Positions 1 through 60,675 of a stretch of 64,000 nt of DNA are shown here, one piece after another. The DNA comes from Scilla litardierei (taxonomy: Eukaryota; Streptophyta; Magnoliopsida; Asparagales; Asparagaceae). The translations under genes and the position numbers were made by a program. The notes under the pieces are model-generated. The model did no database searches, was not told the DNA's origin, and worked only from the letters and a program-made list of their open reading frames with translations. The stretch is taken from positions 178,022,051 to 178,086,050 of the forward strand of contig CM061138.1 in NCBI GenBank assembly GCA_030789695.1. The letters run 5' to 3'. Each line of letters opens with the position of its first letter. Within the stretch, counting starts at the first letter, position 1.

Positions 1-556
1 CTGACACCGACCTGCCAATTCTGAGTGTGGCCATGAGACCAAAAGAAAAGAAGGGGTTACCTCAAAAGGGAGTCGCATGAGGCAGAGTGACGGAAGGAGG
101 AAGCTTGAGAAGACGAAATCAGAAGAGCGCGAAGGGATTAAAGCCTGGGGGACCGGCACCTTATATACGGGGCAATCACGGAATTCGAACCGTCTGGAGT
201 AGGACAGGTGGTGGCATCCAAGGGTCGACGGCGTTTCGAAACCCGTGCTAAGAGAAGATCGAATCGACCGCGTCATGATGACCCACATTTAATGGGCTAG
301 CCTCGACTGACGCGCATGACAAATCCTCAATAGTCACATCACCCGAACCGGGCCGGCTAAACCCGAACGGCTCGGACGATGGGGACAATTGATACGACTA
401 TTTTGAAGAAGCCCAAAATCAAGCTATGGACGAGAAGCCCGCTAGCAAGGTTGGGCCCCGCCAGGTGAGGTCCACGGAGAAAACGCGACTCAATCAATGA
501 GGCTTCCGAAGACTCTCAAATCGGCCCACGATCATCGTGGGGAACCACTCCCCCGG

Positions 557-9609: not shown

Positions 9610-10760
9610 TGTTGGAATTTCATAATTCCATATCTCTATTTCATATGATTTTGATATGAAAAACTTAATATTATTATTATTACTAACTCTTTCTGTGCAG
9701 ATAACTGACCACTCAACATTTATGTCTTGTACATTATCACTAGTTACTGCTTCCTACACAAAGACTTCTCAAAATTCAGATGCAGTCATATTTACGGCTT
9801 TTATTTAATCAATGCATTTTTCATTTTATAGCTTTTTAAGCCTGATGATGACTTATCTTAGTTGACTAGGGTCTCTCCTAACATTTACCTACAACCTAGT
9901 CATTTCAGAATCCTAAAATTCCTATTTTAAAAATTAGCCGACCAATCCATTTTTGTTTACAAGCTAATTTTTCCTTTTCGAAATTGACTTTGAAATTTGT
10001 TGGTCAATTTCCTCTTCATATCAGTTTCACGTTAGTAACTTCAAACAGTCAAATTTTGTCGTTTCAAAATTAGTCGACCAACAAAAAATCATTGGCCGAC
10101 CAATTTCATTTTTGATCTTTTTTGCAACCGGTTTGTTCTATCCGTTGGAGACGGTTTCTGACTGTTAGACTATGACTGTTATAACTTCCTTTCAGATCTA
10201 TAAATAGATGAGTACCCCCTTCTCTTCCATTCACTTCATTTTCCAACTTTCTTCTTTAAAAATTTAATTCTACTTGCTTCATTTGGAGAAATAAAATTAT
10301 GATATTTTCTTCATTTGAAAACTGAAATCTTCAAGAGTGTTTCTTCCGTCCAAAATCTAGAAACCTTGAACTTTCATTTACACCTTTCCTTTGAATTTCA
10401 TTTGAAATTCACATCAAGGCTTTAAATGTTGTTTCATTCTTTATTTTATAAGTTGAATCTCTTGGTGTAGAGATTGTACAAAGTTTGGGACACTGAGAGT
10501 GTCGCCATTTTTGTATGTTGTTTCTTGCGGGGCAAGTGTTATAGTTGATTGAAAATCTCTACGGGATAGAGGAATGGATGTAGGATCACAAGGATCCGAA
10601 CCAGGATAAATCTTGGTGTTTGCGTTTGCCATTCTCTGGATTGTATTTATTTACTTCTACACTATTATTGCATTTTTTATTAACTTTTAAATTTGCAATT
10701 TCGTCGTGATATACACTATTCATCCCCTATAGTATATTTGGTGTGCTTGGAGATCCTACA
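9610..10760 (+). repeat. 5' LTR of SIRE element B
   Basis: Starts TGTTGGAATTTC and ends GATCCTACA, directly before the primer binding site. It is 1,151 bp. It shares organisation with the solo LTR at 34437-36289, including an equivalent 3' end (CTTGGTGTTTGCGTTTG, then CTACA). It holds a pair of 12-bp palindromic motifs at 10070-10081 and 10092-10103. Confidence 0.85.
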
Positions 10761-10762
10761 TT

Positions 10763-10774
10763 TGGTATCAGAGC
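10763..10774 (+). promoter_or_regulatory. Primer binding site, initiator tRNA-Met
   Basis: TGGTATCAGAGC, the standard plant Copia primer site complementary to the 3' end of tRNA-iMet, two bases after the LTR. Confidence 0.9.
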
Positions 10775-10783
10775 GTAGTCAAG

Positions 10784-12420
10784 ATGGCCTACACCTATCC
10801 GATGAATAATTCAACATCTTCATCACAATTTCCAGAAGGACACACTGCCACAAGGCCTCCACTATTCAACGGTTCCAACTATTCTTATTGGAAGACAAGG
10901 ATGACGATCTATCTTCAAAGCATCAATTACGAACTTTGGAACATGTTGGAAATTCAATACGCGAAGCCTACAATTCCTTATGCCCAATGGACTGCTATTG
11001 ACAAATCTGCTGCAACTCACAACTCAAAAGCGATGAATGCACTATTCTGCTCCATGGACAAGAATGAGTTCAATCTTGTATCCCAGGCCAAATGAGCATA
11101 TGACATCTGGCATACACTCGAGGTAACATACGAAGGAACTAGTAAGGTTAAGGAAACTAAAATTTCTGTTCTTGTTCACATGTTTGAACTATTTAGAATG
11201 AAGGACAACAAAACAATTGGAGAGATGGTTACTAGATTAACAGATATCACAAACTCTCTAACTGCTCTTGGTAAGACATATACTGAAAAAACAAGTCAGG
11301 AAGATCCTTCGTGCCTTAACACCAGAATGGGAGAAAAAGACCACAACAATAGAAGAAGCCAATGACTTATCAACTCTCACTGTTGAAAGCCTCGCTGGTA
11401 ATTTGATGACATACGAAGTACAACTTCAAGACCGTAAGGAACAAGCAGACTCAAAGAAGAAAACTCTTGCCTTCAACGCATCATCAGACACCGATGATTC
11501 AGATACAGACGATGATGAAGATGTTACTCTCATCACTAAGAACTTCAAAAAACTCTTAAGAAAAGGTAAGTATAAAAATTTTAAATCTAAGAATACTGAT
11601 TCCTCTCTTTGTTTCAATTGCAATAATCCAGGACATTACAAGAAGGATTGTCCACTTCTCAAATCAAAGTACAAGACTTTCAACAATAACAATGAACATT
11701 CCAAGAGAGAGAGAGAAGTTTGACAGAATGAAGAAAGCTTTCACAGCAACTTGGGATTCATCTTCTGATGAAGAAGACAACAATAATGAAGAAAATGCCA
11801 ATATGTGTTTTATGGCACAAAATGATGAAAGCGATGTAAGTTCTTTTGATAATGAAGAATTATTAGATGCTTTTAATGATCTTTACATGTGTTTCTAAAG
11901 ACTAAATGCACAACACAAGTCTTTGAAACAGAGCAATGATGCTCTTGTTCTTGAACATCAAGAACTTTCATCTAAATGCGTTTCATCTGATACTATTAAC
12001 ACTGAGAAAGACTCGTTGTCTTCTCAAATTTTGAATCTGAATGAAGAGAATGTAATTGTCAAAAATCAGAATTAAGGATTGCACGCACGTCTATCCGAAA
12101 TGGATAATAGTGTTTCATCACTTAAGATGAAATACGATGAGATGTCTGCTAATGTTAATAAATTTTACAAAGGTAAGACTAATCTTGATCTTTGCTTCAT
12201 TTTCAGTATCCAGCAAATCATAGACAAGGATTGGGCTATTCAGATAAGAATATATCCAAATCTTGTAACACAATTTCAACTAGTGGGAAAACAACATTTG
12301 TTAGACCACAAAAGAAGAATCATACATTCATTTACACGAAGAAAGCAAATCCTATTATTTCTTCTTCACAAAGAAATATTTCAAATATTAGAAATATCTC
12401 AAATGCATCTCCTAGGTAAT
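10784..12420 (+). pseudogene. gag: Gag of SIRE element B, broken
   Basis: Starts at the first ATG after the primer site and reads like SIRE Gag (RPPLFNGSNYSYWKTRM, IYLQSINYELW). There is an in-frame TGA at 11093, then a frameshift near 11300. The CCHC knuckle CFNCNNPGHYKKDC lies around 11610-11655. Further stops follow at about 11897 and 12073. The downstream part has coiled-coil-like, acidic low-complexity sequence typical of long SIRE Gag. Non-functional. Confidence 0.8.
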
Positions 12421-27772: not shown

Positions 27773-30700
27773 TCAACCCATGTCCCTAAATTCCCAATTT
27801 GAATAGACTTCAATCTCTTCCTCAGTTATTGGATCTTGGCCATGTAAGCTAGCTCTTATGTCAGCAACTATCTCCTCAAATAGCACGGTCTTGCATCTTC
27901 TCTCATTTTCAAAAATCCGTCTGTTTCTTTCACGCCAGATGTGCCAGACCATTGTAGCCAAACAGGTCTTAGCTAATAAACTCAAGCAATCTTTATTCCC
28001 GTATTTAGCAAGGAAATACTCTCCCACCTCAGATAAGGAATGATGAATATGAGCTGGCACTTTTAATTTTAACATAGATCTGCAGAAGATGTACCTCGAG
28101 TAGGGGCAATCAAAAAACAAGTGAATGGTGTTTTCCATAGCATTTTCATCACATAGGATGCAGTTAGCAGGGGAGCCAGGAGACCATCTGCAAATCCTAT
28201 CTCTGGTAAGCAGCTTACCTCTGAGGGCTCTGAGGAGGTTAAGCGACATTTTCGGAATGTGGTTGGGGTACCATACTAATTTATGAAGAGGGAAAGGGTC
28301 GCTTCTTGTACGCACTCCTTCCCAGGCCTGTTTGAAAGTGAACGACTCACCCCGAAGCCATTTCCAACCATCAGCCCCTGGTCTCAATTTGATGTTACTT
28401 AGTAGATGTCAGACACTGTCTAGAACCGGATCAGCAACCCAGCCGTTGCTACCCCAATATTCAGCAACCGTGATTTTTTCAGCACCATGAGGGATCATAA
28501 AGTGCTGATTGAGAGGTCCCCCATCGAGCCAGAAATCAAACCAGAACAGCGTTGCCTTCCCGTCCCGCACCTCTCTCCTAATCAGTTGCTGCAAAATTGA
28601 TCTACTCCGGAGGAGCCGCTTCCAGGTGCCGGATGAAGTCAAAGCAGGCCGTGCTGCATAAAACCCTGTTGCCGGACAGTAGTTTCCCTGTAGATGAGAT
28701 GCCCACAGGCCGCCGCTTGTTAAAAATCACCATGTTAGGCGCAGGCCAGCTGCCGCATTAAGATCTTCAAGAAGTCGTATTCCCACACCTCCCTCCATTT
28801 TTGGTTTGCACAGATCTTCCCAGGCCCAGGCTTTTGTGTTGCCTAGGATGAATTTCCGACACGCCGATGAGATAGCTCTAAGGACACTTACAGGGATGTG
28901 AAATACCTGCATCCAAAAGGAGACCATGCCGTAGATTACGGAACGGACAAGCTCGATACGCCCCGCAATAGATAGTAACGAAGATGACCAACCCCCCATC
29001 CTCTTCCTACATTTGTCAACCAGCTTCTTGTAATTAGTAGCCACTGGATACTTTCGCGAGAGCGGTAAGCCAAGGTATGTTGTTATAGTTGTAGCAATCT
29101 TGATCCCCAACGTAGCCGCAAGGGACTCCTTGTTCTTCACCCCTTTACTAAACATACCGGAACTCTTATCCCAATTTACATGGAGTCCAGAATATTGGGA
29201 GAACTCTTTCAGTAGGTTTTTGATGCCCAAAAAAGAAGTTTTATTGGCTCTACAAAATACAAGCAAGTCATCAGCAAAAAGAAGATGGGAGATGGAGCCG
29301 CTCCTCTTCATAGGATGTATAGTGCGCAAAATGATAGCTTTCTCCACCAGGATCGAAAAAGTCTCCATGATAATGACAAAGAGGTAGGGGGAGAGTGGGT
29401 CACCTTGCCGAAGACCTCTATTACTACCAAAGAAACCGTAAGGAGAGCCATTTACCATTACCGAGAAGGTTGGAGTAGTGATGCATTCTCTAATCCAGGA
29501 TATGAAGGTTTCAGGGAACCGTAGCTGCTTCATAAAGAAGAAGATGAAGTCCCGATTAACACTATCGAACGCCTTCCTTAGGTCCAACTTTAAACAAGCT
29601 CTTCCCCCCATTGGAATGTTGAAATCCCTAATTTGTTCGTGAGCAATAAGTGTACAATCTGAGAGGAGCCTGCCTTTTAGAAAAGCCGATTGATTTGGAG
29701 AAATAAGGTCATGAACCACCACCTTCAGTCGATTGCAAATGACCTTGCTAATAAATTTATAAAGGACATTACAGCACGCGATCGGCCTATAATCTCCCAG
29801 CCCACTTGCATTTGAATTTTTAGGAACCAGAGTTAGGAAGGTGTGGTTGACTTGCCTTAGGAGTGAGCCAGAGTTGAAGAAAGATTTAATAGCTGTAATA
29901 ACATCCGCTCCAAGGAGATCCCAATTGTGCTGAAAAAAGAAACCATTGTAACCATCAGGCCCAGGCGCCTTGTCCGCCCCAATCTGGAAAACTGCATCCT
30001 TAATTTCCTCACTGGACACCCTTCTGCTAAGCCATAAGGAGGATTCCTCTGTTAAGATTCGCTTTGGAGCCAATTCCCCAAAAGAGCTTAGGTAATTGTC
30101 CTGATTGTAGAGCCTCTTATAAAACAAAGGCGCTTCCTGAATAAGGTCACCAGTCATATTGTTTTGCTTACCTCCATCATCCACCAGATGACTCAAATTG
30201 TTATGGCTGCATCTGGCTTTCATATGAGTGAAGAAGAACTTGGTATTTCTGTCACCGAGGGTAAGCCAGTCCTGGCGACTTTTCTGCCTAAACATATCCT
30301 CTTCCATCTTCAATGCTTGTATCAGCTCTCTAATTAGTTGAGATTCTCTTTTTTGCAAACCGATGTCCACATGGGTTAGGGGGCAACACCTGAGTTCAGC
30401 TAATTCTCTCCTGCACTTCTCCACCACCTTGTCTGCCTTAAAGTCACTAGCCCATCCCCGTAGGATAGGCTTCAACATACTGAGCTTTTTAACCAGGCGG
30501 AACATAGGAGTTCCTTCAAAACTAGCTCCCCAATTATCACAGATAACGTCCTTGTAGCCTGGACAGGAGGACCAGAAATTAAATGATTTGAAAGGCTTAG
30601 GTTTTGCAGGGACCTGTTTATGTAGGTGAACGGCCATAGGATAATGGTCACTAGTGCCAGCCTCCAAATATTGAACATAAGCTTCTGGTAGTAAGGAGGT

Positions 30701-31315
30701 GAATTCTGCATTACCAAACACCCTATCAAGCTGTGCGGCAATTCGTTCAGGGCCAAGTCGGTTGTTACACCAACTGAATCTATTACCAGTACACTTTAGC
30801 TCCTGTAATCTACAACTCCGAATGCAATCTTCAAAATCAAGTACAATGTTAGCATCAAGAGCTCTTCCCCCAATCTTGTCTTTGGAATAAAGGACGCAGT
30901 TAAAATCTCCCCCCACCAACCATGGGACATTGCTTTGCGAATCAGCAACAAGGCTTTTCCACAAATTAATCCTCTCCTCCATGGAATTGCGTCCATATAC
31001 ACCTGTGATAACACAAGTCAATCCACCAACATTTTTGCATGAGATAGAGATATGTTGGTCAGAGGAAGACAGACTGATCACCCGCCAAATTTCAGGGTTA
31101 AAACCCATTAGAATCCGACCACCAGAAGATGAGTCAAAGTTATTAAAAGAGATCCACCCCCTCGGGATGACCCCCCTACCACCTGTGGGAAGAGACTTAA
31201 GCTTTGTCTCTACAAGTATCAGAACAGAGGCCTTCGTATTCCTTAAATTATCCCGCAAATCCCTTCTTCTAACAGAATTATTGAGCCCCCTGGCATTCCA
31301 GATAAACACAGTCAT
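27773..31315 (-). pseudogene. LINE 1 ORF2: endonuclease and reverse transcriptase
   Basis: One continuous frame of about 1,180 codons interrupted only by TGA at 28727 and TGA at 28409. The N-terminal apurinic-type endonuclease shows FIWNARGLNN, VGGDFNCVL and GTSDHYP. The reverse transcriptase shows DYRPIACCNVLYK, LDLRKAFDSVN, GLRQGDPLSPYLF and the catalytic FADD at residues 680-683. The C-terminus has a zf-RVT domain (CILCDENAMENTIHLFFDC) and WHIWRERNRRIF. It nicks the target and copies the RNA in place. The ATG at 31315 overlaps the ORF1 stop (ATGA). The first stop truncates the protein after the RT domain, so it is probably inactive. Confidence 0.9.
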
Positions 31316-33252
31316 TTATCAATGGTCGTTTTGCGGCCTTGGCCCGACTCCTGAAGCCTAGAGCTTTTCCTGGGAGGGGCCAAAGGATTAGAATCCAGCT
31401 TCTTCTTTATATTTTTATTCGCCACCGCATGTAATTCCTCCATTTCTTGGTCCCAGGCTGGGTTGTCGACAACAATCTCATCAGGTATATTGTCCAAGTC
31501 ATGGTCGGAAGCTTCATTGATTAGGGAAGGGAGTGCCCTGGGGATTGGAGGATCAGCTTCCAAAATATTAGCAATCTGATCAAGCAAACATACCTTAGGT
31601 GAATCTTCTGTTAACAGGTTCATTTGGGGAGAACTGGGTGGACAGCGGACTGTGTTGTGAAGTCCAAGGCCCAAGGGGGAAGCCTGAGCCGTTACATTTG
31701 CAGATTTTTCCTTAACAGCAGTGGTATGAGCAGTGGCAACTACGACCTCACCCACTTCAACAGCATTGGCAACGACTACCTCACCCACTTCAATACCCGC
31801 CTGTGGTAACAGGCTGTCTTTACAAGGCTCAATCACATTCCCACATGGATTCACAGCTGTAGGCAGAGATGCACCCGAAGTACCGGCCACATAAGCTGTA
31901 CTAGCGCCTATGGTATGGCCAACCAAAGAGCCCTCCGTGCCATGTGAGGTACTATCCCCTGGTGCAGTCTTTGGAATGAAGGTTTCAGTTGTAGGAAGAA
32001 CTCCCCGTTCCCTTATAATTTCATTGTCAGCCACGCCCGCGACCTGCTCTCCTTCCCCATTCTTATTCACTCCAGACAAGGTTTCAGCAACTTTTAATTG
32101 GAATGAAGGGGGCTTCGCAGCATCTGGACATTGGCTAAATAAGTGGCCAAAGCAGATGCACTTCGTACATCTCGGGGGCTCTCCCTCAATCTGCACATCA
32201 ATGCTTATAGAGGGCCCATCCTCTGTACCCACCAACACAGTCTTTGGAATGGCCTGTTTAGCATGAATTTCTACGAGGCATCGGGCATAGGAAAGGCGCT
32301 CTTTCTTAGCCGTAAGTTTGTCCAAACAAATGGGGTTTCCAACCAAGGAAGCAATGCAATTGAGAATTTCAAGTGTCCACATCTCTAAGGGGACTCCATG
32401 CAATTGGACCCAGACAGGAACCGACGAGAGGATATCCCTCTCAAGTTTGAGTCCAGCACACCAGCGCTGCAGCACCACAAGTCTGCCATCAAACATCCAT
32501 GGGCCCCCGTGAAGGATCCTCTCACATTCACCTTCATCTTCAAATTTGAAGCAGAAGAACCCATTATCCCTACTATAGATTTTTAAACCCTTCTTGAGGT
32601 TCCATAATCTATCCACCCAAGAACGAATTTGGCCATAGAATGGGGCCTCCCCCAGGACGTATCCTACTAGAGTAGACGTCCACTGCTCTGCCCCACGGGC
32701 AAGGGCGCTTCTCGGGACCATTGCCATTAACGTGCCATCCTCTTGGGCATGAGGCGGCACAAAAGCCATACCAACATCACTATCATACCTTCTGATATTT
32801 GAGCATACTTCAGACCATGATTGCTTAATGCCTGTGGTTGAAACTTTAAAATCCACAGCTTTCCTTGGAGGCTTTTTATCAAACACATTATGTGCTTCAC
32901 GCCTTTGTAACCCTTGATCACGAGGGAATGGAGCCTTCACGCCTTTGTAACCCATCGAAGGTCCCCTCGGAAGTATTTTACCCCCACGGTTTGCAGTGTA
33001 GCATTGACCCAATCTGTTGATGCCAAAGTCGCCATTGAATTTCCCGGCACCACCCAATCTTCCTCCCTTATTTTTCCGGCGATCCACAATTTCCCAACCG
33101 CCGCCCAAATGCAATCTGTCACCAGTGCCATGCCGATCCTGAGAAATAGGTGGCTTGAGAACACCTTGCTCCTTCCCAGGTCCATGAGAAAATTTAGCCG
33201 CTAGATGATCTGCGACAGAGCCGCCGCCGCCAGGGTCATTCTCCTCTCCCAT
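31312..33252 (-). CDS. LINE 1 ORF1: DUF4283/zinc-knuckle RNA-binding protein
   Basis: 646 codons from the ATG at 33252; the open frame continues upstream only through a TA repeat, so this ATG is preferred. The N-terminus is glycine-rich and basic. The middle has the DUF4283 region of plant LINE Gag-like proteins (RDNGFFCFKFEDEGECERIL, HGGPWMFDGRLVVLQRW). A CCHC knuckle (CTKCICFGHLFSQC) follows, then a long variable tail ending TTIDK. It would coat LINE RNA. The stop overlaps the ORF2 start by ATGA, suggesting coupled translation. No stop or frameshift seen. Confidence 0.85.
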   Translation of the reverse strand: MGEENDPGGGGSVADHLAAKFSHGPGKEQGVLKPPISQDRHGTGDRLHLGGGWEIVDRRKNKGGRLGGAGKFNGDFGINRLGQCYTANRGGKILPRGPSMGYKGVKAPFPRDQGLQRREAHNVFDKKPPRKAVDFKVSTTGIKQSWSEVCSNIRRYDSDVGMAFVPPHAQEDGTLMAMVPRSALARGAEQWTSTLVGYVLGEAPFYGQIRSWVDRLWNLKKGLKIYSRDNGFFCFKFEDEGECERILHGGPWMFDGRLVVLQRWCAGLKLERDILSSVPVWVQLHGVPLEMWTLEILNCIASLVGNPICLDKLTAKKERLSYARCLVEIHAKQAIPKTVLVGTEDGPSISIDVQIEGEPPRCTKCICFGHLFSQCPDAAKPPSFQLKVAETLSGVNKNGEGEQVAGVADNEIIRERGVLPTTETFIPKTAPGDSTSHGTEGSLVGHTIGASTAYVAGTSGASLPTAVNPCGNVIEPCKDSLLPQAGIEVGEVVVANAVEVGEVVVATAHTTAVKEKSANVTAQASPLGLGLHNTVRCPPSSPQMNLLTEDSPKVCLLDQIANILEADPPIPRALPSLINEASDHDLDNIPDEIVVDNPAWDQEMEELHAVANKNIKKKLDSNPLAPPRKSSRLQESGQGRKTTIDK

Positions 33253-33264
33253 TTTTTTTATTAT

Positions 33265-33268
<4 letters not shown>

Positions 33269-33334
<66 letters not shown>

Positions 33335-33342
33335 CGTCTGTT
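33269..33342. repeat. (TA)n microsatellite plus AACGTCTGTT, left target duplication of LINE 2
   Basis: About 65 bp of TA repeat followed by AACGTCTGTT. The same TA tract and decamer recur at 41285-41374, on the other side of LINE 2. Confidence 0.85.
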
Positions 33343-33500
33343 CATCATCCTCAGCTTTGTGCTCCGGCGACCAGTGCAATTCCTGGGCGATTTATGCCTT
33401 TGGGCTCCGTTGCCTGGGGCTCGGCCCTCCCCTGAGCTCTGAAATCCCCTCATAGCTTTTCCCCCTACCCTGTGAGTTCCACGTTCCAAGATCCACTCAT

Positions 33501-34436
33501 ATGGCCTCGTCTTCCTCCGGATCGACCCCCACCTCTAGGCCGTCTACTGCCTTAACTGACCCTGGGCCGTCTGCTAACTCGAATGGCTCAGGCGAAATCC
33601 CTACGGTATCATCTCAGAACGTCCTCCCCCCATTTGGCCCCTGGCGGTGAAGCTCCGTGGATCGCCGTTATAGGTCGTCGTCGGCCCACCCCATCTGCTG
33701 CGCTCCTTCCCCGACCACCTGTACCCGGCGGCCGTCATCGGCGTGGTGGTGGTCGTGCCCCTCCTCGATCGTGGGGTGGTGATAGGGCGCCCCCCCAATC
33801 CTAAGGTGGTGGCGTTTCCACCTCTGCTAGCACAACTTTCAGCACCCCCAGGTGCTCGTTGGATTGCCCCAGAGAACATCAGCTCAAATCCCCCGTTCTT
33901 CTTATGTTACATCAGCTTCATTCAGCTCTATATGTGCCCCCCCACTGTTCCGAACTGCGGGCTGGCGTTTTCGCCCCCAATTTCGGTTGGAGATGGGGTT
34001 GTAGCCGACATCTTACCTGCAGATATCTCTCAGGCCGCGGGACGCTGGTCGCACACGCTTGTTGGAACTTTGTAGGCCAACGGCCCTACTACGGCCAGCT
34101 CATGGCCTGGGTTGGGCGATCTTGGAAAACGAAGGGTGAAGTCCATGTCCACTCGCGAGAAAACGAGGTTTTCTTCTTCAAATTCGCCATCGATGTAGAC
34201 TGTGGTGACATTCTCAATGGTGGCCCTTGGCTCCTGGATGGCCGACTTCTCGTGCTTAGGCGTTGGGCTCCCGACATAGGCCTCGATAGGGACTTGCTTT
34301 CCTCCGTCCCTATTTGGATTCGTTTTTCGCAACTCCCGATCCAATTTTGGTCTCCCGTCATCCTTGGTAAACTAGCGAGCATCCTCGGCCAACCGCTCTT
34401 CTCCGATGCTACTGCAAATGCTTCCCGACTCTCCTT
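33501..34436 (+). pseudogene. LINE 2 ORF1, 5' part
   Basis: Begins at an ATG shortly after the 5' end and is rich in Ser, Pro and Gly. It has an early stop and frameshifts, then the DUF4283 region is readable (FVGQRPYYGQLMAWVGRSW, FFKFAIDVDCGDILNGGPW, LLDGRLLVLRRWAP). It ends at the solo LTR (34437) and continues after it with the zinc knuckle. LINE RNA-binding protein, non-functional. Confidence 0.75.
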
Positions 34437-34878
34437 TGTTGAGTATTGGTGTTTCATACCAATCTTATTTTGATGATGATCACAACATTATGTTGTTGCT
34501 CATTAATCTCATGTTTTAGTCTCTCAGTTTTATTTCAAGGATATCTTTCTTGGAGACTAATCACTTGGTGTAAGGATGGACATCATGTGAAGAAGGGCCA
34601 AAGTTTGGACTCAAGGAGTGCCAAAGCATGGAGATGGTGGAGAGCATCAAGGCATCAAAGATTGAAGACTTAGACTCTAAGGAAAGCATTTTAATCCATG
34701 TAATTTACTTTATTGCTTTCTCTCTCTTTTGAGTCTAGGTTATTGTAATGCCTTGTTAAATGGTTTACTTATCATGCATATGCATTTAACCATCTTAGTG
34801 AACCTTAGGATTATCATAGAATCCAACCCAATAGGTTCACTCTGTCCAAAGACTCATTTGGAGTCTCTAGCTTTCCAT

Positions 34879-35406
34879 CAGTCGCCTGATGAGGGAAACA
34901 CAGTCGACTGGGTGATTTCCAGTCGCCTGTAGATCCTTCTACAGTCGCCTGATATGCACAGCTCAAGTCATCTTTTCTATTGACTCAAACTTGAGCTTTA
35001 CGCATTATCGTCTGTCGATCAGTTTACAGTCGCATGTATACTTACAGTCGCCTGGAAATGGGCCAACAGTCGCCTGTCTAGCGTATGTGCATTCTCTGCA
35101 TCTCTTTGTCTTTTCTCCAACATTAGTCTGCAGACGACTGATTAAGGTATTACAGTCGCCTGACTATTTGACAGTCGATTGTATTATTAACATCAGTCAC
35201 ATGTGTGAAGAATTGGAGAAAGAGTGCAGCTCTCTGTTTCGATCCATCCCCTGCAGCAGTCGTCTGCTGAAGGATTAACAAGCGCTTATCCTATTTGTCA
35301 GTCGACTGTAATGTCTTCGTCAGTCGACTGTCCTGGCTCAAATTATAGCCGTTGGATATTTTCTAGCCGTTGATCAGTCGACTGTCTTTTGATCAACAGT
35401 CGACTG
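34879..35406 (+). repeat. Array of 16 spaced CAGTCGMCTG motifs
   Basis: CAGTCGCCTG starts at 34879, 34920, 34942, 35045, 35067 and 35153. CAGTCGACTG starts at 34901, 35299, 35321, 35375 and 35397. One- or two-base variants start at 35027, 35131, 35172, 35194 and 35257. Seven neighbouring pairs are exactly 22 bp apart, and other neighbours are 18-19, 42, 63, 64 or 85 bp apart. The intervening 12-bp spacers are unrelated to one another. Function unknown. Confidence 0.95.
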
Positions 35407-35790
35407 TTCCTGTCATTTTCACCCAGTTTCTAGCCGTTGCAGATTTGTTCATTTGGCTGTTTCTTTGGGTTTTTGGGCTTGATATAGGATTTATATATAT
35501 ATATGTGTGCTGCCATCACTTGAGAACTCTTGACAACACTTGATAACTCTTGACTGTATAGAAAATCTCAAGAGATCAATAAGCTACTCTCAAGCTCCCT
35601 CATTTCCCTCTATTGAGCATTCATCTCTCTTCATGCATTGAAGTCCAGCTCAAGGGAAATCATCCAAGTGCTCTCAAGCATATTCCAACACTTGGAGATC
35701 CTCTTCCATGCTTTGCATACATTCATGAGTAAGCATCTCACGGCATAGGTAAGAGTATTTATTTTACTTGGTGTAATTTGTTTTCCTATT

Positions 35791-36071
35791 TCTCTTTGTG
35801 GGATTAGGATACTCTCTTTGTGGGAGTTTCTCTCTTTGTGAGAGGTGTCTCTTTGTGGGACTAGGGAATTCTCTTTGTGGGAATTAACTCTCTTTGTGGG
35901 AGTTCTAGTGTCCTAGTGTAGGGCTAACCCTAATTCTCTGAGTGGGAATTAGTGATTCTCTGTGTGGGAGTCTTGATCCTCGTGTAGGATTGGTTGGGTC
36001 CTTGTGTAGGGCATAAATCCTCTTTGTGGGGTATCTCCTTGTGAGATTTGTATTCACTTCTCTGTGTGGGA
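35791..36071 (+). repeat. Quasi-periodic TCTCTTTGTGGGA repeats
   Basis: Fourteen exact or degenerate copies start at 35791, 35813, 35831, 35848, 35870, 35889, 35911, 35935, 35957, 35977, 35999, 36019, 36034 and 36059. The mean step is about 20.6 bp. They lie in the downstream part of the solo LTR, probably R/U5. Confidence 0.85.
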
Positions 36072-36294
36072 ATATAGTGAATATTGGTGTGGCCGGATGT
36101 ACCCAAGTTTGGGGAACCAGGGTAAAACTTTGTGTTTGCGTTTGGATTGATTGTGCCTTTTAATTCCTCTTGCATTTATAATTTCGCATTTGCAAGTTAA
36201 ATTTTAATTGGACAATTTTATTGCCATTACATATTCACCCCCCCTCTAGTGTGTGTTGTTAGTATTGCAAGGGTTAGACGATCCCTACATCCTT

Positions 36295-50717: not shown

Positions 50718-53296
50718 TGTAACAACCCTAGTGTGCAAATACTAAGTAATCGTTAAATTCATTCAAGTTTCTCGTACATGTGCACACCAATCCCGGGGAG
50801 TGGAGAGATTTGCAAATTGCCCCTCGATTTTTCATTTATACCCAAATGAGGGTATCAATGTAAGATTGGGCTTAAGGCAAATTTCTTTAAGTGAAGGGTT
50901 ATTGTGAAAAAGGGAAATGAGATATTTGCAATGGCAACCTTGTAATAAAATCAAACATTTGGATGGCTAATTTTGAAAAAAAAAGAAAGAAAAAAAAAGA
51001 AAAGAAAAGAAAATGAGGGTATGGCAATAAGTTTGACATACCAAAGTACACCTAAACCCCCCATCTCTCCCCTCACCCTACACCATAACCCCCCCCCCCC
51101 CCCCCCCCCCCCCCTCCCCTCTCCTAGGTCCCTTTCTCTCCCCCTCTCTCCATTATTTTTAGCCCATGGCTGAAATTAGCTAGGGAAAAAAAGGGAAAAG
51201 AAAAAGGAAGAGAAGAAAGAAGAGAATAAGAAGAAGAGGAAGGAGAGAGGAGAAGAGGAGGCCAAGTTGATGGTAGCTCCCTCCAAACCCTAGGCATCCT
51301 TGAAGCTTCAAAAGAGGAAGGATCTTCTCAACCTACCTCTAATTGTAGATAATGACAATAATGTTGTATGTTTAGGCTTCTTCATGAAAATTTGGGGAGA
51401 GTGTTGTAGAGCTAGGACTCTTGTTGCATGCTTGACAATTTGCTGAAACTTTAGCTAAGTGCTGGGATTAATTGGCTATTTGGAATGCTCTGAATATTTT
51501 ATATGATATTTATCTCGTAGTTACAAGTAACTTTAATGTTCAACACTTTTTCTAATTCGAACTGGAAGTTGGGGTAAACATTCGAATTGTGAAACATGCC
51601 AGGAATTCTGTCAAGCTGTACATATTTCAGTAAAACGAGCACCACTACCTGCACACATCTTGGATTTTGTTGATTTTGGTCTTGTTGGAAAGCTAACAAG
51701 TTTTTCTCAAAGTCCATTGAGACTTTTATGTTGAAATTCTGGCTAGAGTATGTCCAAAATTGGCTTTGAACACAGACACAGAAATCTGTCTGCAGAACAG
51801 TTTTGACACCCTTTACCAAATAATTCACTATAAATCCAATACTTCATATTTTTGTTTGAAATTTTATGGCTGAACTCAGAACTATAATATCTCCAACTTT
51901 CATTCTTTGAGGTTTGTCAAATTCTCAAAATAAATGGATTAAAAATGCTGTTTTTCTATCTGTTCATGCAATTTCAGTATGTTGAAGGGTGTTGGGTGAA
52001 ATTGGACTTGTGTGATATTGCTAATTCTTCACTCCAAATGCATGAATGATGTTGATGCATGTATGTAAGATTAGTTATGCTATTTGTTACAAAAATTGGT
52101 GACATGATTCTCTTCATTTATGTGGCGCTCATTATATGTTTGTTAAAATGCCTGAATGAACTTAAGATTGAAGAAACTTGGAAAATGGCATTGTTAATTG
52201 TGTGACATGTATTACCCACGAGGAATTGTATATGATCAATGAGGTTAGGATACATGGCTTATGGAGCATGCTAGTTTGTTGTGAATATCTTGATGAAAAG
52301 AATGAATTTGGACATCATTTACATACGTCATTTTACATGCTCAATACCCTAGGATTAATGATTAGCTAAAAGATAACCTAGGGATATCTTGTTTCACTCG
52401 AAGTGGGTGAGGACCCTAGGAGGGTTGGGGGAAACCAAGGTAACGAGTGGACATGCGGGGATGGACTGCTGGGTTGTGGACCACTCCTGACGAGCCCTCA
52501 GCGGCGGGGAGTTGGTGTGGTTGAGTTTGTTGTGTTGGTGAACGGCTTCTTTCGTAAGAGCTTGTCTCGGGAAGTTGTAGCATTCCACCCACCTTACCGG
52601 GTGAGGTCCAGTCCCCGATGTCTGACCCGTTACTGAGGTTTCGAATTCATGCATGAAAACTAACCTATAAAGAAAAAAACAGTAACTCTGGAATGTGATG
52701 CCTTTTCCTTTGTTGTGATTCCTTGTTGTGCACTATGATTAGAGTAGTAGAGTTATGGAGTTCCTACTGGGCACGCTGTGACGTGTCCTCCCCCCTACAG
52801 GTCCAGGCACTGGTTCTCTGGCGGCGGGCCCGGGAGTGGAGACCCCGGAGGGCAGCTCGTCTCAGCAGGGTCCGTAGTGTATGGTCAGTGTGGGTCGCGT
52901 GGTGTAGTCTTGGGTTGTGTGTGTGTGATGAACGCAGTGTTGTACCCATGTTCCCTTTGTACCCCGTAGGGTTGAGTTGTACTTTTGTGGGAGCTTTTGC
53001 TGTTGGGGTTGTACAGTGGACTTGTGCGGTACTGGCCATGTAGTAGCGGTGCTCTGTGACTCTTGGATGTTCTGTTCGTCGTATTTTACCTTACTGCCTG
53101 TGTTGTAGTGTCTTGTACTATCTTTCTGTGTTGGAGCTGTACTGTTCTGTTAATCGTTCAGTCTGTACTTTACTGCCTGTGTTTCCTCAGTGTTTGCAGT
53201 GGCCTGCGTGACTTTGGTGTGTACTTTAGCGCTTGGTACTCTAATACCGCGGCTTGTCACGCCGACCCTCCCTATTTTGGGCAGCGGGGCGTGACA
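50718..53296 (+). repeat. 5' LTR of element F
   Basis: TGTAACAACCC...GGGGCGTGACA, 2,579 bp. It contains an A/G-rich tract, a 26-bp C run (51089-51114) and a GC-rich 3' third. The small open frames in it recur in the 3' LTR. Confidence 0.97.
51089..51114. repeat. Poly-C tract, 26 bp
   Basis: Uninterrupted C run in the 5' LTR of element F. The matching site in the 3' LTR (about 58473-58484) has only 12 C. Confidence 0.9.
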
Positions 53297-58103: not shown

Positions 58104-60675
58104 TGTAACAACCCTAGTGTGCAAATACTAAGTAATCGTTAAATTCATTCAAGTGTCTCGTACATGTGCACACCAATCCCGGGGAGTGGAGAGATTTGCA
58201 AATTGCCCCTCGATTTTTCATTTATACCCAAATGAGGGTATCAATGTAAGATTGGGCTTAAGGCAAATTTCTTTAAGTGAAGGGTTATTGTGAAAAAGGG
58301 AATGAGATATTTGCAATGGCAAACTTGTAATAAAATCAAACATTTGGAGGGCTAATTTTGAAAAAAAAGAAAGAAAAAAAAAGAAAAGAAAAGAAAATGG
58401 GGGTATGGCAATAAGTTTGCCATACCAAAGTACACCTAAACCCCACATCTCTCCCCTCACCCTACACCATAACCCCCCCCCCCCTCCTCCCCTCTCATAG
58501 GTCCCTTTCTCTCCCCCTCTCTCCATTATTTTCAGCCCATGGCTGAAATTAGCTAGGGAAAAAAAGGGAAAAGAAAAAGGAAGAGAAGAAAGAAGAGAAT
58601 AAGAAGAAGAGGAAGGAGAGAGGAGAAGAGTAGGCCAAGTTGATGGTAGCTCCCTCCAAACCCTAGGCATCCTTGAAGCTTCAAAAGAGGTAGGATCTTC
58701 TCAACCTACCTCTAATTGTAGATAATGGCAATAATGTTGTATGTTTAGGCTTCTTCATGAAAATTTGGGGAGAGTGTTGTAGAGCTAGGACTCTTGTTGC
58801 ATGCTTGACAATTTGCTGAAACTTTAGCTAAGTGCTGGGATTAATTGGCTATTTGGAATGCTCTGAATATTTTATATGATATTTATCTCGTAGTTACGAG
58901 TAACTTTAATGTTCAACACTTTTTCTAATTCGAACTGGAAGTTGGGGTAAAAATTCGAATTGTGCAACATGCCAGGAATTCTGTCAAGCTGTACATATTT
59001 CAGTAAAATGAGCACCACTACCTGCACACATGTTGGATTTTGTTGATTTTGGTCTTGTTGGAAAGCTAACAAGGTTTTCTCAAAGTCCAATAAGATTTTT
59101 ATGTTGAAATTCTGGCTAGAGTATGTCCAAAATTGGCTTTGAACACAGACACAGAAATCTGTCTGCAGAACAGTTTTGACACCCTTTACCAAATAATTCA
59201 CTATAAATCCAATATTTCATATTTTATGTCTGAAATTTTATGGCTGAACTCAGAACTATAATATCTCCAACTTTCATTTTTTGAGATTTGTCAAATTCTC
59301 AAAATAAATGGGTTAAAAATGCTGTTTTTCTATCTGTTCATGCAATTTCAGTATGGTGAAGGGTGTTGGGTGAAATTGGACTTGTGTGATATTGCTAATT
59401 CTTCACTCCAAATGCATGAATGATGTTGATGCATGTATGTAAGATTAGTTATGCTATTTGTTACAAAAATTGGTGACATGATTCTCTTCATTTATGTGGC
59501 GCTCATTATATGTTTGTTAAAATGCCTGAATGAACTTAAGATTGAAGAAACTTGGAAAATGGCATTGTTAATTGTGTGACATGTATTACCCACGAGGAAT
59601 TGTATATGATCAATGAGGTTAGGATACATGGCTTATGGAGCATGCTAGTTTGTTGTGAATATCTTGATGAAAAGAATGAATTTGAACATCATTTACATAC
59701 GTCATTTTACATGATCAATACCCTAGGATTAATGATTAGCTAAAAGATAACCTAGGGATATCTTGTTCCACTCGAAGTGGGTGAGGACCCTAGGAGGGTT
59801 GGGGGAAACCAAGGTAACGAGTGGACATGCGGGGATGGACTGCTGGGTTGTGGACCACTCCTGACGAGCCCTCAGCGGCGGGGAGTTGGTGCGGTTGTGG
59901 TTGAGTTGGTTGTGTTGGTGAACGGCTTCTTTCGTAAGAGCTTGTCTCAGGAAGTCGTAGCATTCCACCCACCTTACCGGGTGAGGTCCAGTCCCCGATG
60001 TCTGACCCGTTACTGAGGTTTCGAATTCATGCATGAAAACTAACCTATAAAGAAAAAACAGTAACTCTGGAATGTGATGCCTTTTCCTTTGTTGTGATTC
60101 CTTGTTGTGCACTATGATTAGAGTAGTAGAGTTGTGGAGTTCCTACTGGGCACGCGGTTACGTGTCCTCCCCCCTACAGGTCCAGGCACTGGTTCTCTGG
60201 CGGCGGGCCCGGGAGTGGAGACCCCGGAGGGCAGCTCGTCTCAGCAGGGTCCGTAGTGTATGGTCAGTGTGGGTCGCGTGGTGTAGTTTTGGGTTGTGTG
60301 TGTGTGATGAACGCAGTGTTGTACCCATGTTCCCTTTGTACCCCGTAGGGTTGAGTTGTACTTTTGTGGGAGTTTTTGCTGTTGGGGTTGTACAGTGGAC
60401 TTGTGCGGTACTGGCCATGTAGTAGCGGTGCTCTGTGACTCTTGGATGTTCTGTTCGTCGTATTTTACCTTACTGCCTGTGTTGTAGTGTCTTGTACTAT
60501 CTTTCTGTGTTGGAGCTGTACTGTTCTGTTAATCGTTCAGTCTGTACTTTACTGCCTGTGTTTCCTCAGCGTTTGCAGTGGCCTGCGTGACTTTGGTGTG
60601 TACTTTAGCGCTTGGTACTCTAAAACCGCGGCTTGTCACGCCGACCCTCCCTATTTTGGGCAGCGGGGCGTGACA
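58104..60675 (+). repeat. 3' LTR of element F
   Basis: 2,572 bp, same termini as the 5' copy. It differs by scattered substitutions, the poly-C length and a few small indels (for example near 59890). Confidence 0.97.

What the first reader, a model, noticed from the sequence alone, without database searches (positions are those of the whole stretch)
34879..35406. Palindrome-like motif array phased at 21 bp in a SIRE solo LTR
Sixteen copies of CAGTCGACTG, CAGTCGCCTG or close variants lie in 528 bp. Seven adjacent pairs start exactly 22 bp apart, with unrelated 12-bp spacers. Relative to the first copy, the starts are 0, 22, 41, 63, 148, 166, 188, 252, 274, 293, 315, 378, 420, 442, 496 and 518. 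The first fourteen are within 2 bp of multiples of 21, two helical turns, and a decayed copy (TTATCGTCTG) sits at the empty slot 126. This looks like a phased site for a dimeric DNA-binding factor, or a series of 10-bp-stem, 12-nt-loop hairpins in the LTR transcript. I know of no described function.
Basis: seen in the sequence. Interest (0 to 1): 0.78.

Follow-up and report, generated by a model that had tools for sequence, protein, structure and literature searches.

The report
Rigid palindrome array in Sirevirus promoter
A plant jumping gene's promoter region carries eighteen palindrome sites set at strict distances, an unusually rigid form of a feature already known in this group of elements, and larger relatives in the same genome carry a second such array in front of their extra gene.

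Summary
The array is real. All 16 boxes sit at the stated places in a 1853-bp solo LTR (34437-36289, target duplication TCCTT). Copies elsewhere in the 3.68-Gb host genome identify it as Sirevirus-type copia. Palindrome arrays upstream of TATA in Sirevirus LTRs are known (Bousios 2010), so the kind is not new.

The "21-bp phase" is really a grammar: quartets of boxes spaced 22-(18..20)-22 bp, recurring about every 126 bp, then a pair ending 85 bp before TATA. The window has 18 slots, two decayed. Exact 22-bp pairs number 46,769 on the forward strand, 23-bp pairs 110. A second LTR family, whose flanks match only over short stretches, shares the grammar. Two further groups keep 22-bp pairs but mostly space quartets at about 135 bp.

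The 10-bp-stem/12-nt-loop hairpin fails; each quartet is a weak inverted repeat. I favour a phased platform for a dimeric host factor.

In larger relatives an internal array lies between pol and a post-pol ORF, with a TATA-like site 79-83 nt downstream in 9 of 9 related copies. That is a candidate for the internal env promoter that Bousios 2010 could not conclusively identify. No protein, transcript or small RNA was tested.

The parts
34437..36289 (+). Sirevirus-type solo LTR, 1853 bp (TGTTGAG...CCTACA)
   Evidence: Boundaries and flanks; sibling copies begin the same way after PPT AGGGGGAG-AT and end before ATTGGTATCAGAGC
34432..34436 (.). Left target-site duplication TCCTT
36290..36294 (.). 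Right target-site duplication TCCTT
34879..35406 (+). Palindrome array: 18 slots (16 recognisable, 2 decayed), four quartets plus one pair
34879..34951 (+). Quartet 1 (box starts 34879, 34901, 34920, 34942)
35005..35076 (+). Quartet 2 (35005 decayed, 35027, 35045, 35067)
   Evidence: Slot 35005 reads CAGTCGNCTG in 10 of the 11 other copies aligned
35131..35203 (+). Quartet 3 (35131, 35153, 35172, 35194); the only quartet that pairs mainly with itself in the predicted array RNA
   Evidence: 23 pairs inside it, 6 bases paired outside
35257..35330 (+). Quartet 4 (35257, 35279 decayed, 35299, 35321)
   Evidence: Slot 35279 reads CAGGCGCCTG in 10 of the 11 other copies aligned
35375..35406 (+). Final pair (35375, 35397)
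35492..35504 (+). TATA-type core promoter, first TATA 85 nt after the last box
35349..35354 (-). AACGG core (CCGTTG on +), MSA-like, first of three
   Evidence: AACGG as MSA core from PMC8964727 passages
35367..35372 (-). AACGG core, second
35434..35439 (-). AACGG core, third
36236..36249 (+). CACCCCCCCTCTAG, resembling the polyC-rich Sirevirus integrase signal near the LTR 3' end
   Evidence: feature named in PMC2829016

Best explanation
The array is the U3 regulatory module of a Sirevirus LTR. Its unit is a palindromic box, CAG-N-CG-N-CTG, with two inverted half-sites. Two boxes fixed at 22 bp (about two turns of B-DNA) make a 32-bp unit. Two such units, partly inverted copies of each other across an 8-10 bp gap, make a 72-74 bp quartet. 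In the window's family and one other LTR family quartets recur about every 126 bp (twelve turns), and the last pair usually ends 87 bp before TATA. Most likely each box is bound by a homodimer of a host factor, and the rigid pair spacing lets two dimers sit side by side on one face of the helix. The array would act as a multi-site activator of LTR transcription. Autonomous relatives would use a second such array between pol and the post-pol ORF as an internal promoter. Shown here: sequence, spacing, sharing between families, quartet dyad, TATA distance, internal array. Inferred: any protein, dimer binding, activation, internal promoter activity.
For: Spacing: CAGTCGMCTG-N12-CAGTCGMCTG has 46,769 forward and 46,477 reverse matches in the host genome, against 1 and 0 for the pattern read backwards (fully symmetric pairs count on both strands). 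With N13 the counts are 110 and 135. In 30 loci chosen by LTR sequence outside the array, 68 distinct quartets have 136 of 136 outer gaps equal to 22, while the middle gap is 18, 19 or 20 (12, 37, 19). Conservation: over nine sibling copies the substitution rate is 0.070 in boxes, 0.170 in spacers, 0.113 in linkers, 0.069 before and 0.104 after the array. CpG observed/expected is 0.77-0.90 in nine arrays printed (two rows are the window itself), against 0-0.57 in the LTR around them. Families: 78 arrays fall into four flank groups (49, 14, 9, 5) plus one single, with no flank hit of 150 bp or more between groups. Pairs at 22 bp occur in all four; quartets at a 125-127 bp step in A and B. Promoter link: TATA starts 85-89 nt after the last box in 31 of 33 family-A and 9 of 9 family-B LTRs, exactly 87 in 25 and 7. 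Internal arrays have a TATA-like site at 79-83 in 9 of 9 copies. Helix: 10.5-bp phase against random linkers p=0.021, 0.004 (two A arrays), 0.0005, 0.0065 (two B arrays).
Against: No factor, footprint or expression data. The 10.5-bp phase is not significant for two internal arrays (p=0.27, 0.11) or two family-D arrays (0.28, 0.18). The quartet step is 135-138 bp in four of the five internal arrays where it could be measured (126 in the fifth) and 135 in the one D array, so 126 bp is not general. B arrays have one step of 111-115. The TATA distance is 120-122 in four of five D arrays and unclear in the fifth. One family-A LTR had no TATA found and one had it at offset 0. Many loci are copies or LTR pairs of one element, and middle-gap lengths are mostly fixed per slot, so the 136-of-136 contrast rests on far fewer lineages. 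Boxes are less divergent than spacers but no less than the LTR before the array (0.070 against 0.069). A and B arrays still align at about 70% over part of their length, so they are not fully independent.
Confidence: 0.6

Rival explanations
1. The array matters as RNA: quartets fold into ~73-nt hairpins in LTR-containing transcripts (3' U3 of genomic RNA, read-through or antisense RNA) and feed Dicer. Small-RNA production is the main consequence, for the host's benefit or as a conflict.
For: The array RNA folds far better than dinucleotide shuffles (-187.7 kcal/mol, z -7.7). Within quartets, spacers S1 and S3 pair at 6.04 of 12 positions, against 5.39 with S3 of other quartets (n=49, p=0.0015; other redundancy cut-offs give p=0.0365, 0.004, 0.01 at n=148, 21, 12). 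In maize Sireviruses small RNAs concentrate on palindrome regions (passages of PMC10760457 and PMC5311732, citing Bousios 2016, which is not held).
Against: Most of the fold follows from the boxes: boxes kept and the rest shuffled gives -175.5 on average (2 of 30 reach the native value), boxes shuffled gives -149.1. In the predicted fold only one of four quartets pairs mainly with itself (23 pairs inside; the other three 13, 11 and 3). Variable positions of facing boxes do not co-vary: P2:P3 0.80 against null 0.98, P1:P4 0.96 against 0.95 (n=49). Only 6 of 175 110-nt LTR windows fall below -40 kcal/mol. A hairpin does not explain exact 22-bp pairs or the TATA distance.
Confidence: 0.15
2. The geometry is only history: an ancestral 32-bp unit was duplicated in direct and inverted order, and spacing persists because indels are rare, without selection on spacing.
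For: Spacers keep a weak shared pattern and partial inverted similarity inside quartets. They form fewer clusters (32) than column-random 12-mers (about 62). Family A and B arrays still align at about 70% over part of their length.
Against: Spacers are the fastest-changing class in family A yet keep length 12, while the 8-10 bp middle spacer and the linkers change length between slots and groups. The pair gap is 22 in groups with no long flank similarity.
Confidence: 0.14
3. The boxes are a DNA-methylation platform: each CAG-N-CG-N-CTG offers two symmetric CHG sites around one CG, and regular spacing helps maintenance or sensing of methylation rather than transcription-factor binding.
For: The box reads CAG, CG, CTG with positions 4 and 7 variable. 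CpG is kept in the array far more than around it.
Against: Heavily methylated sites should be lost fast by deamination, yet boxes change less than spacers. No methylation data. Nothing in this model needs 22 bp or an 87-bp distance to TATA.
Confidence: 0.07
4. The boxes bind an element-encoded protein (Gag or integrase) and serve packaging or integration rather than transcription.
For: The window's family looks non-autonomous (one interior with a gag ORF and no pol-like ORF), yet shares the array grammar with family B, as expected for a signal recognised in trans.
Against: Box position tracks TATA in families A and B, and a further array sits far from the LTR ends, upstream of another ORF.
Confidence: 0.04

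Closest known systems
Sirevirus palindromic repeated motif (RM) boxes, Bousios et al. 2010 (PMC2829016)
   Same: Palindromes of 10-20 bp, at least eight copies per element, in the upper half of the LTR, CpG-rich, upstream of TATA; extra copies upstream of the env gene. The Vitis box CGGTCGACCG differs from CAGTCGACTG only at positions 2 and 9.
   Different: No CGG-CCG core (12 of their 13 boxes have it; Tnd-1 does not). The fixed 22-(18..20)-22/126-bp grammar, the quartet dyad and an internal TATA-like site are not in the sections and passages I read; their supplementary figure S4 was not seen.
Maize Sirevirus palindromes CACCGGACNNNGTCCGGTG (Opie/Ji), cis-region and small-RNA hotspots
   Same: Clustered palindromes in the regulatory part of the LTR, strong predicted structure (passages)
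   Different: Different and longer box; the original 2016 paper was not held, so its spacing was not compared
Tandem activator boxes of other plant copia elements (such as Tnt1 box I)
   Same: Repeated LTR activator motifs, symmetry named for Tnt1 box I (passages of PMC2829016)
   Different: Two or three tandem boxes there; 18 slots in phased quartets here

Membership tests
Sirevirus (genus of Ty1/copia elements) | LTR end CA, ATTGG, then PBS TATCAGAGC | tested here: met
   Not testable in the solo LTR itself; met in family-A copies L004, L014, L024 (CTACA or TTACA, then ATTGGTATCAGAGC)
Sirevirus (genus of Ty1/copia elements) | Several PPTs AGGGGGAG upstream of the 3' LTR, the last followed by AT/TG | tested here: met
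   Family-A copies L002, L008, L014, L024: two or more upstream PPTs and terminal AGGGGGAG-AT-TGTTGAG
Sirevirus (genus of Ty1/copia elements) | PolyC-rich signal near the LTR 3' end and TATA near mid-LTR | tested here: met
   CACCCCCCCTCTAG at 36236; TATA at LTR base 1056 of 1853
Sirevirus (genus of Ty1/copia elements) | copia-type gag and pol | tested here: met
   Retrotran_gag_2 in one family-A interior and RVT_2 in a family-B interior. No pol-like ORF among those of 80 aa or more in two family-A interiors (judged by eye, no profile search of the DNA), so that family looks non-autonomous
Sirevirus (genus of Ty1/copia elements) | RT phylogeny within the genus | not tested
   No tree was built
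Sirevirus RM boxes of Bousios 2010 | Palindrome, eight or more copies, in LTR upstream of TATA | tested here: met
   16 recognisable boxes, last box 85 nt before TATA
Sirevirus RM boxes of Bousios 2010 | CGG-CCG core | tested here: not met
   Core is CAG-N-CG-N-CTG. One of their own 13 (Tnd-1) also lacks it, so this is filed as a variant, not a plain member
Sirevirus RM boxes of Bousios 2010 | Array forms a CpG island | tested here: inconclusive
   CpG observed/expected 0.90 in the window array against 0.00 before and 0.18 after, but G+C only 0.45; CpGplot was not run
Sirevirus RM boxes of Bousios 2010 | Extra boxes upstream of env in env-bearing elements | tested here: met
   Internal arrays between pol and a post-pol ORF in L011 and L025. 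That this ORF is env rests on position only; one of its two pieces has a sub-threshold Transposase_32 match, the other none

The most novel reading that the evidence does not exclude
The box array plus a TATA box is a portable promoter module that Sireviruses carry twice: once in U3 for the genomic RNA and once between pol and the post-pol (env-like) ORF. The internal copy (for example L011 1579-1929, TATA-like at about 2011, ORF open from 2230) would be the internal env promoter that Bousios 2010 favoured but could not conclusively identify. The exact 22-bp pair would be the recognition unit of one host factor that drives both.
Probability: 0.38. Interest if true: 0.7.

Novelty: new variant of a known kind. 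Interest (0 to 1): 0.52.

Why it matters
[quoted passage not shown] A strict spacing rule gives a sharp probe for finding one. The internal array with a TATA-like site makes the question of how Sirevirus env-like genes are expressed directly testable by mapping transcript starts. If the array is both promoter and small-RNA source, it would also explain why the element cannot easily shed a signal that the host can silence.

Tried and rejected
Pair-level hairpins (10-bp stem, 12-nt loop): rejected on spacer complementarity, with one weak result in favour (p=0.049).

A plain 21-bp phase as the description: replaced by the 22-(18..20)-22 quartet at a ~126-bp step.

A universal 126-bp step or box-to-TATA distance: rejected, because internal arrays and family D differ.

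All quartets as RNA hairpins: in the predicted fold only one of four is.

Motif pair in public viral contigs: 0 matches. Literature for the exact box: 29 papers hold the letters, 20 were listed and none of those titles is about transposons; no paper holds it with the word retrotransposon. Listings for Sirevirus with spacing, hairpin, internal promoter, palindromes, and for palindromic/22 bp/helical showed no title on this grammar; of the listed papers I opened only PMC2829016, PMC10760457 and PMC5311732, and PMC8964727. The searches cover open-licence PMC only. The 2016 Genome Research paper is not held.

Planned counts for N11, N9, the inverted-box pair and more internal arrays did not complete, so the genome-wide spacing contrast rests on N12 against N13 only.

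Full report
Observation. The LTR holds 11 exact boxes where 500 dinucleotide shuffles hold none, and 15 with at most one mismatch where shuffles average 0.07. The gaps are 22, 19, 22, 85, 18, 22, 64, 22, 19, 22, 63, 42, 22, 54, 22. A common phase at 21 is stronger than in any of 5000 random placements and than random long gaps (p=0.0002), but not clearly stronger than a reshuffle of the same gaps (p=0.094).

Anatomy of the insertion. The array lies in a solo LTR at 34437-36289 with target duplication TCCTT. The LTR interrupts a LINE-type ORF: the left piece has a DUF4283 domain, the right piece has no Pfam match, and joining the flanks at one duplication gives a reading that runs on across the junction into a zinc-knuckle-like stretch. 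The array starts 442 bp into the LTR and ends 85 bp before a TATA run at 35492. A polyC signal like that of Sireviruses lies at 36236.

Identity. The host genome is held (3.68 Gb, window at C9:178022051). Sibling copies of the window's LTR (family A) show ATTGG and PBS TATCAGAGC right after the LTR, several AGGGGGAG PPTs, and a terminal PPT followed by AT then TGTTGAG. These are the junction features described for Sireviruses (PMC2829016). In three places family-A LTRs enclose only about 2.6-3 kb, if each pair is one element. One interior (L014) holds a 501-aa ORF with Retrotran_gag_2 and no pol-like ORF of 80 aa or more; a second (L024) also lists none. So the family looks non-autonomous. A first look with the LTR start found 2125 candidate places, of which 40 were scored.

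The grammar. In sibling copies the array reads as four quartets, each 22-(18..20)-22 bp, at a 125-127 bp step, then a pair after 54 bp: 18 slots. The window's empty slots at +126 and +400 are boxes in 10 of the 11 other aligned copies each. Of 30 loci chosen by the LTR start alone, 24 showed the exact start tag in my script; 23 of these had boxes (one is the window itself) and one had none. Most of the 23 follow this plan; L041, L042, L047 and L048 carry extra or shifted gaps. In 20 further places chosen because one pair had a 23-bp gap, 181 of the 241 other gaps are 22, 18-20 or 62-64.

Spacing strength. Pairs at 22 bp occur 46,769 and 46,477 times on the two strands, pairs at 23 bp 110 and 135 times. 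The count for 21 bp did not complete. Among distinct quartets, outer gaps are 22 in 136 of 136 (flank-chosen), 130 of 132 (22-bp-chosen) and 51 of 64 (23-bp-chosen), while the middle gap is 18, 19 or 20 in every set. The loci include LTR pairs and near-identical copies, so these are not independent events.

Families. Of 78 arrays with at least seven boxes, flanks group into 49 (A), 14 (B), 9 (C), 5 (D) and one single, with no hit of 150 bp or more between groups; without that length limit there are 22 hits between A and B, none longer than 55 bp, and none between other groups. Inside the array A and B still align at about 70% over part of the length. B is an autonomous type: if the LTRs in L010 and L011 belong to one element they enclose about 10.5 kb, and an RVT_2 piece lies inside. 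C arrays are internal. D looks like a third LTR family, because L007 holds two D arrays 4.9 kb apart with near-identical flanks. A and B share the full grammar (B with one short step of 111-115 bp). C and D have 22-bp pairs and some 22-19-22 quartets, but the step is 135-138 bp in four of five measurable C arrays (126 in the fifth) and 135 in one D array.

Box and spacer evolution. Over nine family-A copies (window, L009 and L015 left out) boxes differ at 0.070 per site, spacers 0.170, linkers 0.113, LTR before the array 0.069 and after it 0.104. The fixed part of the box is CAG-N-CG-N-CTG; T4-A7 is commonest (165 of 366 such boxes). The Vitis box CGGTCGACCG would become CAGTCGACTG by one C-to-T type change on each strand; that derivation is inference.

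RNA or DNA. The array folds well as RNA (z -7.7), mostly because palindromes are present, and only one of four quartets folds mainly on itself. Pair hairpins are disfavoured. Each quartet is a weak inverted repeat: in all four window quartets spacer 1 matches the complement of spacer 3 at 6 of 12 positions and the direct copy at 1-4. Across 49 non-redundant quartets pairing is 6.04 against 5.39 with other quartets (p=0.0015), but variable positions of facing boxes do not co-vary. I read this as DNA-level symmetry with folding as a by-product, with some room left for an RNA role.

Promoter link. TATA starts 85-89 nt after the last box in 31 of 33 family-A and 9 of 9 family-B LTRs, at 87 in 25 and 7 of them (the A set includes the window and LTR pairs). 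The DNA between box and TATA looks largely unrelated in A and B by eye, apart from a CCGTTG. In internal arrays a TATA-like site (at least 6 of 7 positions) lies at 79-83 in 9 of 9 copies; it is the single best site in the next 300 nt in five and tied in four. Shuffling each copy's 300 nt puts such a site there in 6-9% of trials, and a 7-of-7 site, seen in five copies, in 0.2-0.6%. The copies are related (32-91% ungapped identity over the stretch), so this is two or so independent cases, not nine. Four of five D arrays have the site at 120-122. In L011 and L025 the internal array follows the end of pol and precedes an ORF with a shared start (MAPK.KGKEKI...). Bousios 2010 found boxes at that place, took them as support for an internal env promoter, and said they could not conclusively identify one (section 20).

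What is known and what is not. Palindromic boxes in Sirevirus LTRs are known, so this is a variant, not a new kind. What I did not find described, within the searches named and the text read, is the fixed 22-(18..20)-22/126-bp grammar, the quartet dyad, and the internal TATA-like site. For PMC2829016 I read the abstract, sections 9, 10 and 20 and passages; for PMC10760457, PMC5311732 and PMC8964727 passages only; Bousios 2016 nothing.

Noticed in passing
window 35349, 35367, 35434 (minus strand): Three AACGG cores in one orientation flank the last box pair just upstream of TATA. AACGG is the core of the MSA element bound by MYB3R factors (PMC8964727 passages). Three CCGTTG copies are present in 15 of 24 family-A LTRs examined. 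The LTR might be expressed at G2/M.
   Followed up: partly
window 35790-36073: A second repeat array below TATA: eight copies of TTCTCTTTGTGGGAAT-like 16-mers, with steps that include 22, 22, 19 and 22 bp.
   Followed up: no
window about 10400-11723: Another copia-type element with TTTGGTATCAGAGC at 10762 and a gag zinc knuckle has no cluster of boxes nearby within two mismatches: a natural contrast without the array.
   Followed up: partly
L007 1614-1959 and 6529-6874: LTR family D has a different layout (22, 19, 30, 42, 22, 71, 22, 19, 22, 45, 22) and a TATA-like site at 122.
   Followed up: partly
L014 3773-5278 (-): A 501-aa gag-type ORF in an interior without a pol-like ORF: an apparently non-autonomous Sirevirus family.
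   Followed up: partly
window 50718-53296 and 58104-60675: A pair of 97.6% identical ~2.6-kb repeats flanks ORFs that look gypsy-type by eye: a fairly young element.
   Followed up: no
window 28727-33489 (-): A LINE-like element with long open ORFs of 862 and 725 aa (identity by eye).
   Followed up: no
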